A stretch of 64,000 nt of DNA from Roseivirga thermotolerans (lineage in GTDB: Bacteria > Bacteroidota > Bacteroidia > Cytophagales > Cyclobacteriaceae): positions 806,001-870,000 of the forward strand of contig NZ_BNAG01000001.1 of NCBI RefSeq assembly GCF_014653175.1. The letters are read 5' to 3'. A program made the position numbers and the translations under genes. Under the pieces are notes generated by a model that searched no databases, was not told the DNA's origin, and worked only from the letters and a program-made list of their open reading frames with translations. Positions within the stretch are counted from its first letter, which is position 1. Each line of letters starts with the position of its first letter. Shown one piece after another: positions 17,293 through 23,913 of this stretch.

Positions 17293-19146
17293 TTAATTGT
17301 TAAAATCGCCTCGAAGCGTTCTAAATCGATTCCTCGCTTCGGCCACATAGATACTGCCTTTGAATCTGGTGAGCAAGTCATTGTACACTTTCATAGCCTC
17401 ATCACTTTTTTTCAGGTCTTCTTCTAAAATCACGCCCGTAAGATATAGGGCATCATCGGCTAGTATATCGTAAGAGTATTTTTCATTAATGAGTCGGAGG
17501 GCATTTAAGGCTTGCTCAAATTCACCTAACTGTCTAAGCGTTTGAGCTTTAAGCATCAACACCTCATCGGTTATCGAATGCCTGTCATATTTAGCCAGCA
17601 TGGAGTCCATAGCTGCCAAAGCTTCCGTTCTCTGGTTTTGAAAGATCATTAGTTCCACATTGGCATAATCTTGCATCACCACATCGGTGGAATCAAAAAC
17701 GGTATTGTTTTTAATAAGTATGCTGAGATCTAATGCATCGTTGGCAATTTCTCTGGAAGTGGCTAGCTTGAGTATATCTAAATGGCTTTGAGCGAGTTCG
17801 AATTCTCCTTTGAAGTATGATAGCTTGGCACTTTTTAGTTTCGCCATATAGCCAAGGGGTTCGTCTTTGAACATTCGCTCTACCTGACCATACAAGAGGA
17901 TTGACTCCCATGGCTGTTGATCGAGTAAATAAATATCGGCCAGATCCATTTTTGCCTCAGCCAAAATTCTATGCTTACCAATGGGTTGTTGAACCAGTTC
18001 GGTAAGTGTGGCTATTGCTGTGTCGATTTTATTAAGCTGAAAAGCCTGGAGAAGGGCTATTCTACGCTGAGCTTCCAGAGCCGTAAAGAGGTCTTTGGAT
18101 TCTTCTTTAAAGCTTTGATACTTACCAATAAGTTGCCGTACTCTCATTGTATCTACAGGATACGACTGTTTTATAACTTCTTCTTCTGCAAGTAATGAGT
18201 AGCGTTGGGCAAGCCGAAAATTCGGGCTTTCTTGGAAATCGGCAATGATATACTCAAATGCTTTAGCAGCATTTTTATAGTCCTTGTTCTCATAGGCAAT
18301 TATGCCCACATTCAAAATGTTATGGGCACGATTGTCCAATCTTCTGTCTAAGGCTCTGGCTTGCCGCAGAGCGGCCGAAAAATTTTTTTGCTGAAGGTGG
18401 GTCCAGATTAACAATTCATTGTACACTGGGTTTCCTGCTTCTTCCTGAATAAACTCATAAAGTACTCCTTCCAACAAATCCATGTCTTCAGGTTCTTCCA
18501 AATACCGCTGAAGAGAGTTTTTCACAAATCCCACACTGGTGGGTTGAGTTTTAGAAAAATGAAGGTACTCTCGTATCATTTTCTCTTTCTCACCCATCAC
18601 CCTGTATACCGTTGCCAAATCAAGAGCAAACATGTCGCTATCTCCAAATACCTTTCTGCCTACTTCATAGGTTTTAATGGCTTTTTCTCTAAAATCTTTC
18701 TGAAAAAGCATTTGTGCGAGTATTCGAATATTGTTTCGTTTTTGTCGTTCATCGCTGTCCTTTGCAATTTCCTCTATTAGTTGATCCAGGTGTTTGTCGG
18801 CCTGATCTTCTAATTTCATGGTCCGATATAGTACCGCCATGTCTACTTCATAGTTAAAATCATTGGGCAGTTGCCTGATGGCATACTTGAGGTATTTTTC
18901 GGCTTCATCGAAAGACTTTTCGGAAAGGAGTAGATTGAAATAGCTATCGTGGATAAGCGGTAAAATCTGACGGTTACGAGCCAGCTTTTCAAATTCAGCT
19001 TTTGCTTTTTCCACCTCGCCTTGCTGCAAATACTCTTCGGCCAATTGTATGGGGTTGGTAGACTGAGCAAAAAGGGCTGCAGCAAAGCCAAGTGCGACTA
19101 GGGTGGTAAGTCCGAAACGTCTGGGGTTTATCAACACTTTCAACAT
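17293..19146 (-). CDS. TPR-repeat secreted protein
   Basis: A 617-residue protein with a signal peptide (LVALGFAAALFAQS) and many 34-residue helix-turn-helix repeats. Examples are AEEYLQQGEVEKAKAEFEKL, FDEAEKYLKYAIRQLPNDFN, KDYKNAAKAFEYIIADFQES and GEFEQALNALRLINEKYSYD; TPR/tetratricopeptide character runs nearly the whole length. It should sit in the periplasm and act as a scaffold. No enzymatic domain is visible. It is followed 9 bases later by the 66-residue gene and preceded by the candidate replication origin. Confidence 0.85.
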   Translation of the reverse strand: MLKVLINPRRFGLTTLVALGFAAALFAQSTNPIQLAEEYLQQGEVEKAKAEFEKLARNRQILPLIHDSYFNLLLSEKSFDEAEKYLKYAIRQLPNDFNYEVDMAVLYRTMKLEDQADKHLDQLIEEIAKDSDERQKRNNIRILAQMLFQKDFREKAIKTYEVGRKVFGDSDMFALDLATVYRVMGEKEKMIREYLHFSKTQPTSVGFVKNSLQRYLEEPEDMDLLEGVLYEFIQEEAGNPVYNELLIWTHLQQKNFSAALRQARALDRRLDNRAHNILNVGIIAYENKDYKNAAKAFEYIIADFQESPNFRLAQRYSLLAEEEVIKQSYPVDTMRVRQLIGKYQSFKEESKDLFTALEAQRRIALLQAFQLNKIDTAIATLTELVQQPIGKHRILAEAKMDLADIYLLDQQPWESILLYGQVERMFKDEPLGYMAKLKSAKLSYFKGEFELAQSHLDILKLATSREIANDALDLSILIKNNTVFDSTDVVMQDYANVELMIFQNQRTEALAAMDSMLAKYDRHSITDEVLMLKAQTLRQLGEFEQALNALRLINEKYSYDILADDALYLTGVILEEDLKKSDEAMKVYNDLLTRFKGSIYVAEARNRFRTLRGDFNN

Positions 19147-19149
19147 GCC

Positions 19150-19498
19150 TTATATATTAAATTAAATATTAAATAATTTTTTATCATTTCTATTAGGGCT
19201 GTGTAAAAGTGGATAAGTGAGTTATCCATGTGGAAGAAATGAAAAGGTGTATGAAACGTTGATGAGTTCATGGTTATTCACACAAGCAGCTTTTTTAAGT
19301 TACTGATAGATAACATCTTATTGCTAACTGTTGATAACGTAGGCATTTTGTGGATATTGAGCATTAACTCTGAGGGGTGTGAATGAGTTATGGATATTAT
19401 GTGAATGGAGACTGTTGATATCTCTTTTGGGTACTAATTGGCGACTTGTTGGGGATAGTGAGTGAGGAATCCACAGACTTATCCATAGTTATTCACAA
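19150..19498. other. Candidate chromosomal replication origin (DnaA-box cluster)
   Basis: A gene-free 350-bp stretch. Sites matching the DnaA box TTATNCACA are perfect at 19274-19282 and 19489-19497 (both TTATTCACA). One-mismatch matches, on either strand, are at 19208-19216 (AGTGGATAA), 19329-19337 (TGTTGATAA), 19349-19357 (TGTGGATAT), 19378-19386 (TGTGAATGA) and 19479-19487 (TTATCCATA), with weaker ones at 19222 and 19467. An almost pure A/T tract (19151-19190) at one end could be the unwinding element. mnmG (gidA), a classic origin neighbour, and parS-like sites lie 2.5-4.5 kb away. Known: clustered DnaA boxes beside an A/T tract mark oriC. Inferred: this is oriC. Confidence 0.6.
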
Positions 19499-21109
19499 CT
19501 AAAAGTTGATGTTAGTATCTGTTGTTGCCCAGTTTTTTCGGACTTCTATTACTTTGGTTTGGTAGTAATTGTCGTAATAGAAATGAACGGGTTCAGGTGG
19601 AGTATTGGTGAGTAAATTACCAATATCGAAAAGTCCGTTGCCATTCACATCTTCAATAACTCGTATCATGTATCGTCCGGGAGGTAATTGTGTGAAGCTG
19701 TAATTTTTGTTGTAGCTCTGCTTAAGTATTTTTAGTGTGGTGGCATTTAGGAGCTGTACAATGATGTTTGGTTTGTTTGTTAGGACCTGACCTGAGATTG
19801 ATGCCAATTCTGATTCGGGTATAAACTTGAACGTTTGAGTGTATTGTTTGGAGGTATCTTGGTCTATGGATATGAAACTCCCTTTGCCTGCTGTAAAGTT
19901 TAATTCGGGGTTGGTATTACTCATATAATCACTTAGAGTAAGGTTGGTATACAGTTCCGTCTTGTACGGGTTGAATTGAAAATCTTGGCTGTTGAGGGGA
20001 ATGGTTCTAGTAGAATCTAGTTGAAGGATAAGACTATCAGCACGCAATTCCAAAATAGGTTTGCTAAACGCAAGAGTTAGGTGAGTGCCTTTTACTACAT
20101 TGGGTTTTTCCGGAACAGTGTTAACGGAGAAGGCTGTCTTTTCGAGTTTTGACTGTGTGAAGTATAGTTTCACAGTATCGCGGAGAGTATTGTTGATGGA
20201 GTCTTTTGCGGTATATATAAGAGGTACTGTATCGTTAAAATTCTGTTCGTACCGATAGAATCTTATTTTCTCTGGCCCTTGGGGCTGATAGTAAAAGTTG
20301 TCGTCATTCTCTATGCGGAAGTCCGTAATAGGTTTACTGAAAGTAATATCGAAATAGCTGGCATAGTGCCTGGCAGAGAGTCTGCGGAGGTCGGAGGTAT
20401 TCAGGTTTTGGACCGTAAAATTTATATTTTCTAAAGGGCTTTGCAGATTTAGCGTGTCAGGAAAAAAACCGTATCGTTCGTTTTTTGAATCTGCCTTATT
20501 ATTGTTGTTTTTGTCGTTGGTGGCATATATACGGTATTTACCTGAGGGCAGATTATTGAAGGTGTAGTTGCCTGTGGAATCAGTGAGTGCAAAATAAGAG
20601 GCCACACCATTCAATATATTGGTGGTATCTGAGGAAGGAAAAAGCGAAACAAGAGCGTTTTCCATGGGTTCCTGCGTGTATAGGTATTTAATGTTTCCAC
20701 TTATGCTGAGAGAGTCGATATAATCTCCGGTGCTGAAACTGATGTTTAGATTGTCTACGGGGTTGTTGTTGGTAATGTCTTTTATGGTCTTACCAAAAGA
20801 GATAGAGTATGTGGTATTGTCTTTAAAAGGTTCAAAGAAATAAAGCTCTACCTCGTTTTTCTTTACCCTTGCCCTGAAGCTGCCGGTTATTCTGGGGGTT
20901 ATTATTAAATCAGATTCTATGTTTTGTGTAGTTACCCACTCATCAAAGGTTAGAAGTATGGTTTGTCCTTTAAACTGTGTTTGCCCGGTAGTTGGAGTGG
21001 AGGAAATGAGCTTGGGTGGTGTGTGATCTTCTGGTCCTCCTGAGGGAGTACTCACGTTGGCACACCCAAAAACTGCAATGGCTATGATAAATAGGACTAT
21101 ACCTCTCAT
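19499..21109 (-). CDS. Ig-like (SbsA/Big_5-type) domain lipoprotein
   Basis: A 536-residue lipoprotein (leader ending VFGCANV, Cys at about 16) common in Bacteroidota. It opens with STPSGGPEDHTPPKLISSTP, which leads into a Big_5 Ig-like domain (FKGQTILLTFDEWV, then NTTYSISFGKTIKDITNNNP). A carboxypeptidase-regulatory-like repeat follows (TDSTGNYTFNNLPSGKYRIY). Another prealbumin-like fold closes the protein (YSFTQLPPGRYMIRVIEDVN). Such proteins sit at the outer membrane or cell surface, but their role is unknown. It overlaps the upstream methyltransferase gene by four bases (ATGA), so the two are translationally linked. Confidence 0.85.
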   Translation of the reverse strand: MRGIVLFIIAIAVFGCANVSTPSGGPEDHTPPKLISSTPTTGQTQFKGQTILLTFDEWVTTQNIESDLIITPRITGSFRARVKKNEVELYFFEPFKDNTTYSISFGKTIKDITNNNPVDNLNISFSTGDYIDSLSISGNIKYLYTQEPMENALVSLFPSSDTTNILNGVASYFALTDSTGNYTFNNLPSGKYRIYATNDKNNNNKADSKNERYGFFPDTLNLQSPLENINFTVQNLNTSDLRRLSARHYASYFDITFSKPITDFRIENDDNFYYQPQGPEKIRFYRYEQNFNDTVPLIYTAKDSINNTLRDTVKLYFTQSKLEKTAFSVNTVPEKPNVVKGTHLTLAFSKPILELRADSLILQLDSTRTIPLNSQDFQFNPYKTELYTNLTLSDYMSNTNPELNFTAGKGSFISIDQDTSKQYTQTFKFIPESELASISGQVLTNKPNIIVQLLNATTLKILKQSYNKNYSFTQLPPGRYMIRVIEDVNGNGLFDIGNLLTNTPPEPVHFYYDNYYQTKVIEVRKNWATTDTNINF

Positions 21110-23859: not shown

Positions 23860-23913
23860 TGTTCCACGTGGAACAATAAGTGTATTTGAAGACTTAAAGT
23901 TTCACGTGGAACA
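23860..23913. promoter_or_regulatory. Pair of parS-like ParB-binding sites
   Basis: TGTTCCACGTGGAACA (23860-23875) is a perfect 16-bp palindrome fitting the widely conserved parS consensus TGTTNCACGTGNAACA. A second site, AGTTTCACGTGGAACA (23898-23913), differs at the first base and mixes the two half-site forms. They lie 38 bp apart in the 80-bp gap between ybeY and mnmG. ParB loads at such sites to organise and segregate the origin region. No parA/parB gene is in the window. Confidence 0.75.

What the first reader, a model, noticed from the sequence alone, without database searches (positions are those of the whole stretch)
19150..19498. Candidate replication origin with clustered DnaA boxes
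Seen: two exact TTATTCACA boxes and at least five one-mismatch boxes in 350 gene-free bases, next to a ~40-bp A/T tract. Known: oriC regions combine DnaA boxes with an A/T-rich unwinding element and often lie near gidA/mnmG, which is 2.5 kb away here. Inferred: this window contains oriC of the chromosome.
Basis: partly seen in the sequence, partly recalled or inferred. Interest (0 to 1): 0.7.

Follow-up and report, generated by a model that had tools for sequence, protein, structure and literature searches.

The report
Chromosome replication origin beside mnmG
This short gene-free stretch is very probably where this Bacteroidota bacterium starts copying its chromosome; it has the standard parts of a bacterial origin, lies about half a megabase from the dnaA gene, and is a well-supported example of a known kind rather than something new.

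Summary
Confirmed: window 19147-19498 is very probably oriC. The gap holds 2 exact and 6 one-mismatch DnaA boxes; 5000 dinucleotide shuffles reached at most 5. The exact boxes alone are near chance; the cluster is not. Cumulative GC skew over 280 contiguous kb is lowest at window 18849, about 300 bp from the gap. The two best parS-like palindromes of the genome lie 4.4 kb away, upstream of mnmG. dnaA is 530 kb away.

All 39 family relatives examined that keep the Ig-like neighbour have a box-rich gap: 330 boxes in 40 gaps (window included) against 18 in as much other intergenic DNA. parS is upstream of mnmG in 40 of 40. It fits the published basal unwinding system.

Against: skew in two of three sampled relatives places the origin only to within 0.1-0.6 Mb, and a family model finds this site best in the genome at only E = 0.03. 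Origins near mnmG and away from dnaA are already reported for Bacteroidota.

The parts
19147..19498 (.). oriC intergenic region (352 bp, 33.5% G+C), between the TPR gene and the Ig-like-domain gene
   Evidence: 8 DnaA boxes against 0.77 expected; conserved position in 39 of 39 relatives with the Ig-like gene
19150..19184 (.). 35-bp pure A/T tract, candidate DNA unwinding element
   Evidence: A/T-rich DNA in the same place after the trios in the aligned relatives
19181..19217 (-). Tandem-box/trio element read on the minus strand: TTATCCACT overlapping TTTTACACA by one base, spacer GCCC, then TAA-TAG-AAA trios running into the A/T tract
   Evidence: same layout scoring 17 or more of 20 in 35 of 39 relatives, same orientation in 39 of 39; 1 of 800 mononucleotide-shuffled gaps reached 17
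19200..19208 (-). DnaA box TTTTACACA (1 mismatch), trio-proximal
19208..19216 (-). DnaA box TTATCCACT (1 mismatch)
19274..19282 (+). DnaA box TTATTCACA (exact)
   Evidence: a box of the same orientation aligns here in several relatives
19329..19337 (-). DnaA box TTATCAACA (1 mismatch)
19349..19357 (-). DnaA box ATATCCACA (1 mismatch)
19378..19386 (-). DnaA box TCATTCACA (1 mismatch)
19479..19487 (+). DnaA box TTATCCATA (1 mismatch)
19489..19497 (+). DnaA box TTATTCACA (exact), beside the stop codon of the Ig-like gene; a box at this place recurs in many of the aligned relatives
23860..23875 (.). parS-like palindrome TGTTCCACGTGGAACA just upstream of mnmG
   Evidence: one of only two places in the genome within 2 mismatches of the recalled parS consensus; site in this position in 40 of 40 relatives
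23898..23913 (.). second parS-like site AGTTTCACGTGGAACA
17293..19146 (-). TPR-repeat protein gene, left neighbour; the element points towards it
   Evidence: Pfam TPR families
19499..21109 (-). Big_5 (bacterial Ig-like) protein gene, right neighbour, transcribed towards the gap
   Evidence: Pfam PF13205
21106..21969 (-). methyltransferase gene
   Evidence: Pfam PF13489
21976..23841 (-). mnmG (gidA), between parS and oriC
   Evidence: Pfam PF01134

Best explanation
The gap is the chromosomal origin of replication. Inferred mechanism: DnaA binds the box cluster; from the tandem boxes at 19200-19216 an ATP-DnaA filament runs along the minus-strand trinucleotides (TAA-TAG-AAA) into the adjoining A/T tract and opens it; helicase is loaded and two forks leave. 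ParB bound at the parS pair 4.4 kb away, upstream of mnmG, would load SMC and help separate the new origins. Shown here: the boxes, the A/T tract, the ordered element, its conservation and orientation, the parS pair and the skew switch. Inferred from known systems: DnaA binding, unwinding, helicase loading, ParB binding.
For: 8 boxes against 0.77 expected. Skew negative in 13 of 13 sampled C1 stretches to the left and positive in 10 of 10 to the right; contiguous cumulative minimum at window 18849. G047, a complete relative: local minimum over 160 kb at 1,425,842, about 7.5 kb from its element. Box-rich gap in 39 of 39 relatives with the Ig-like gene: 330 boxes in 18,314 bases against 18 in 18,132 bases of 53 other intergenic stretches, exact boxes 79 against 1. 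Tandem-box/trio element at 17 or more in 35 of 39 relatives, and in all 15 relatives without a TPR hit. parS upstream of mnmG in 40 of 40. A model built from 35 relatives without the window ranks this site first in the genome.
Against: No experimental data. Skew is weak (0.01-0.1), only contig C1 was sampled, and the whole-genome minimum could not be computed. In relative G036 stretches on both sides of the gap (790-870 kb) are negative and the switch lies between about 1.0 and 1.3 Mb, against an element at 0.84 Mb; in G028 it lies between about 6.09 and 6.40 Mb, against 5.78 Mb; in G047 the coarse 20-point minimum is at 0.85 Mb, although the contiguous stretch fits. Model E-value is only 0.03, with 150 of 1448 candidates scored. 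Four of 39 relatives (L045, L058, L065, L071) score 15 for the element, as shuffles do; the score was designed after looking at the gaps.
Confidence: 0.95

Rival explanations
1. The boxes are a DnaA-regulated promoter region of the TPR gene, or a DnaA-titrating cluster, not the origin.
For: DnaA boxes also occur upstream of dnaA in this genome and as a 12-bp-spaced array on C2, so box groups outside origins exist here; the TPR promoter must lie in or near the gap.
Against: In 15 of 39 relatives no TPR gene is found beside the gap (one of these is cut by a contig end) and an AMP-binding enzyme, a MarR regulator or another gene stands there, yet boxes and the trio element remain in 15 of 15. Skew switch and parS are not explained.
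Confidence: 0.03
2. The true origin lies at dnaA, 530 kb away, as the start-at-dnaA convention of many assemblies assumes.
For: Three boxes (one exact, two with one mismatch) lie about 110-150 bp upstream of dnaA; one of the weaker model hits (E 0.83) is there.
Against: Skew does not change sign near C1:295 kb in the sampled stretches; 4 boxes in the best 352-bp stretch there against 8 in the gap; the parS sites are at mnmG; dnaA is 0.86-2.4 Mb from mnmG in 5 of 5 complete relatives, positions and distances by my arithmetic.
Confidence: 0.01
3. The origin is nearby but not this gap, for example at the parS sites or another gap within some tens of kb.
For: GC skew alone cannot resolve below several kb, and parS is 4.4 kb away.
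Against: No other 352-bp stretch of the window has more than 3 boxes, and the ordered tandem-box/trio element is conserved here.
Confidence: 0.01

Closest known systems
mnmG-adjacent oriC of Flavobacteriaceae (Mariniflexile litorale, PMC11278836; Algorimicrobium, PMC12843772), predicted by Ori-Finder 2022 and GC skew
   Same: Same phylum, next to mnmG; in the first paper the start at dnaA was reported not to align with the skew plot (passages)
   Different: Other family; I did not compare sequences. One figure legend in PMC11278836 labels mnmG as ter, against its own text.
Basal unwinding system (BUS) of Bacillus subtilis oriC and predicted counterparts (PMC8287927, passages)
   Same: Tandem DnaA boxes, short spacer, at least three consecutive trinucleotides with central A, then A/T-rich DNA
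   Different: Not beside dnaA; boxes deviate by one base; function untested
Cytophaga hutchinsonii oriC plasmids (Xu et al. 2012; only the reference-list entry seen)
   Same: By its title, replicative oriC plasmids in a Bacteroidota species of the order Cytophagales (order recalled)
   Different: Paper not read; its origin position and sequence were not compared
parS-marked origins in gut bacteria, including Bacteroides caecimuris (PMC10197239, passages)
   Same: parS cluster plus GC skew mark the origin, with read coverage in support, and origin and dnaA need not coincide
   Different: Mapped with Hi-C and coverage there; only sequence here
E. coli oriC beside gidA (mnmG)
   Same: Origin near mnmG (passage on the gidA-mioC origin)
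   Different: Here two genes lie between, and mnmG and its followers are transcribed towards the origin

Membership tests
Bacterial chromosomal oriC | Cluster of DnaA boxes in an intergenic region above chance | tested here: met
   8 against 0.77, maximum 5 of 5000 shuffles; 0.35 per 350 bp in other intergenic stretches against 6.31 in the gaps
Bacterial chromosomal oriC | A/T-rich unwinding region beside the boxes | tested here: met
   35 bp pure A/T at 19150-19184; melting itself not tested
Bacterial chromosomal oriC | At the GC-skew minimum | tested here: met
   Own contig: sign switch and minimum about 300 bp away, on sampled C1 only. Relatives: G047 locally yes, G036 and G028 only to within 0.1-0.6 Mb
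Bacterial chromosomal oriC | Initiates replication (copy-number peak, autonomous replication) | not testable with these tools
   No reads, no bench
Basal unwinding system (DnaA boxes plus DnaA-trios) | DnaA box with few mismatches, at most 16 bp from at least three trinucleotides with central A (rule in PMC8287927 passages) | tested here: met
   Boxes with 1 mismatch each; 12 bp from the outer box, 4 bp from the inner; TAA-TAG-AAA, the next triplet TGA breaks the rule. Applied by eye, not with the authors' program
Basal unwinding system (DnaA boxes plus DnaA-trios) | DnaA-dependent strand separation at the trios | not testable with these tools
   Needs biochemistry
parS (ParB centromere site) | 16-bp palindrome near consensus, near the origin, with a ParB gene in the genome | tested here: met
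   Two sites within 2 mismatches of TGTTTCACGTGAAACA, the only ones in the genome; at 3 mismatches hits do not exceed the reversed control (22 against 41 places). ParB gene at C3:699414. ParB binding untested

The most novel reading that the evidence does not exclude
In this family, and perhaps in much of Bacteroidota, parS, mnmG and the origin form a conserved unit in which the mnmG - methyltransferase - Ig-like genes are transcribed from the parS side straight towards the origin, with no terminator-like site seen between them here (simple scan), so that read-through transcription helps open or time the origin. The gene order parS-mnmG-Ig-origin outlasts loss of the gene on the other side, which this would explain.
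Probability: 0.1. Interest if true: 0.5.

Novelty: new member of a known kind. Interest (0 to 1): 0.25.

Why it matters
It fixes the origin of a genome whose dnaA is half a megabase away, and supplies a conserved signature (parS pair upstream of mnmG, box cluster about 2.5 kb downstream of mnmG, tandem-box/trio element) that could place origins in draft genomes of related Bacteroidota. Two complete relatives' records (G028, G047) begin at dnaA (dnaA at bases 391 and 509), about 1.0 and 1.4 Mb from their inferred origins. It does not change the picture of how bacterial origins work.

Tried and rejected
Origin at dnaA: rejected on skew, box count and parS position. Promoter or titration cluster of the TPR gene: rejected because the gap content persists in 15 of 15 relatives without a TPR hit. 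Box density over the whole window as evidence: no excess. Exact boxes as evidence: near chance. Coarse 20-point skew of complete relatives: gave only approximate positions, and in G036 and G028 not at the gap. A search for papers with 'Cyclobacteriaceae' and 'oriC' gave none, which says little, as the library is open-access only. Rival clusters: the 5-box stretch at C1:1362853 lies in and beside an ORF.

Full report
What is there. The window is bases 806001-870000 of contig C1 (1.38 Mb) of a 4.21-Mb, 12-contig genome. The 352-base gap 19147-19498 lies between a TPR-protein gene and a Big_5 (Ig-like) protein gene, both on the minus strand, with a methyltransferase gene and mnmG further right. 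It holds two exact and six one-mismatch matches to TTATNCACA. Shuffling the gap 5000 times gave a mean of 0.77 and at most 5 matches; 400 permuted motifs gave at most 4; elsewhere in the window the best 352-base stretch has 3, and in 603,486 bases of the genome held here the next best has 5. Two exact boxes by themselves are close to chance (and my arithmetic). A 35-base run of A/T lies at 19150-19184.

Position on the chromosome. All 13 sampled stretches of C1 up to 825.3 kb have negative GC skew and all 10 beyond it positive (the sign at 760 kb is marginal, -0.006). Over the contiguous stretch C1:690001-970000 the cumulative skew is lowest at 824849, window 18849. Only C1 was sampled, so this is not a whole-chromosome minimum. 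dnaA is at C1:294835-295320, 530 kb away.

parS. A scan with the recalled parS consensus found only two places within two mismatches in the genome, window 23860-23875 and 23898-23913, directly upstream of mnmG; at three mismatches hits do not exceed the reversed control (22 places against 41). A ParB gene is present on contig C3. In 40 of 40 relatives fetched, at least one site with no more than one mismatch to TGTTNCACGTGNAACA lies within about 120 bp upstream of mnmG, and 38 of 40 have two or more sites with up to two mismatches in the 1 kb held. In the 29 loci examined of the 79 other genomes of the wider draw, 3 of 3 of the same family or order and 13 of 15 of the same class have a site (up to two mismatches) upstream of mnmG, and in 11 of 11 from other classes it lies just downstream instead (for loci L189 and L198, cut by contig ends, the printed offsets are wrong and the sites are within 200 bp).

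Conservation of the gap. The family search covered 60 genomes including this one, 58 with mnmG; I fetched the region downstream of mnmG for 40 of the 57 relatives. One (L060) ends at a contig end before the Ig-like gene; in 39 of 39 others the Ig-like gene is present and a gap of 212-1006 bases follows it, with 3 to 14 boxes. Over the 40 gaps including the window there are 330 boxes in 18,314 bases, 79 of them exact; 53 other intergenic stretches of 150 bases or more in the same loci have 18 in 18,132 bases, 1 of them exact. The densest permuted motifs (198, 118) are partly shifted or overlapping versions of the box; the median is 30.

The ordered element. Reading the minus strand from the Ig-like side, the gaps end with two tandem DnaA boxes, a short spacer, TAATA-type trinucleotides and A/T-rich DNA. 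Scored as TTATCCAC - ATCCACA - TAATA (maximum 20), the window has 18 and 35 of 39 relatives 17 or more, all 39 on the same strand; of 800 mononucleotide-shuffled gaps one reached 17. Four relatives (L045, L058, L065, L071) have 15, which shuffles also reach. The score was made after looking at the gaps, so the shuffle comparison favours it. As an independent check, a sequence model from the 35 relatives, without the window, was run on the whole genome: the window site is the best hit, but with E = 0.03, next 0.12, and only 150 of 1448 first-look candidates were scored. In the window the element is TTATCCACT/TTTTACACA, GCCC, TAA-TAG-AAA. It satisfies, by eye, the rule for DnaA box, spacer of at most 16 bp and at least three central-A trinucleotides given in passages of PMC8287927.

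Which neighbour matters. In 15 of 39 relatives no TPR hit is found in the fetched stretch; one is cut by a contig end, and two tested neighbours there are an AMP-binding enzyme and a MarR regulator. All 15 keep the element with scores of 18-20. The gap content is therefore not tied to the TPR gene.

Complete relatives. Sampling 20 stretches each: G047's 20-point cumulative minimum is at 0.85 Mb with two near-zero stretches after it, but a contiguous 160 kb has its minimum at 1,425,842, about 7.5 kb from its element. In G036 stretches on both sides of the element (790-870 kb) are negative and the switch comes between about 1.0 and 1.3 Mb; in G028 it comes between about 6.09 and 6.40 Mb, the element being at 5.78 Mb. 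These two place the origin only roughly. dnaA lies 0.86-2.4 Mb from mnmG in 5 of 5 complete relatives (circular distances by my arithmetic).

Known background. Passages of PMC11278836 and PMC12843772 report Ori-Finder/skew origins at mnmG in Flavobacteriaceae, the first noting that the start at dnaA does not fit the skew (a figure legend of the first labels mnmG as ter). Passages of PMC10197239 report origins at parS clusters, supported by coverage, not always at dnaA, in gut bacteria including a Bacteroides. The finding is therefore a new, well-supported member of a known kind.

Verdict. oriC, confidence 0.95. The mechanism (DnaA filament from the tandem boxes along the minus-strand trios into the A/T tract; ParB at parS) is inferred from known systems.

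Noticed in passing
G000:C2:360769-360813 (locus L167, outside the window): Four same-strand DnaA boxes at an exact 12-bp period (three exact, one with one mismatch), about 130 bp upstream of a gene that looks like glnS (name recalled from the protein, not tested). Two exact boxes so spaced occur in 8 of 60 family genomes, this one included, reversed control none; absent from the same-genus relative G057, and the G025 hit falls in its origin gap.
   Followed up: partly
G000:C1:295841-295877 (locus L001): Three DnaA boxes (one exact, two with one mismatch) about 110-150 bp upstream of the likely dnaA start, suggestive of autoregulation.
   Followed up: partly
L185-L211, around mnmG: Across the wider phylum parS-like sites lie upstream of mnmG in most same-class genomes looked at (13 of 15) but just downstream of it in 11 of 11 from other classes.
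   Followed up: partly
G000:C3:699414-699926: The only ParB-family hit of the genome is on another contig, C3, not beside parS or the origin on C1.
   Followed up: no
L035-L044, L049, L050, L056, L061, L068, left of the gap: In many relatives the TPR gene beside the origin is not found and other genes stand there, e.g. an AMP-binding enzyme (L037) or a MarR regulator (L050).
   Followed up: partly
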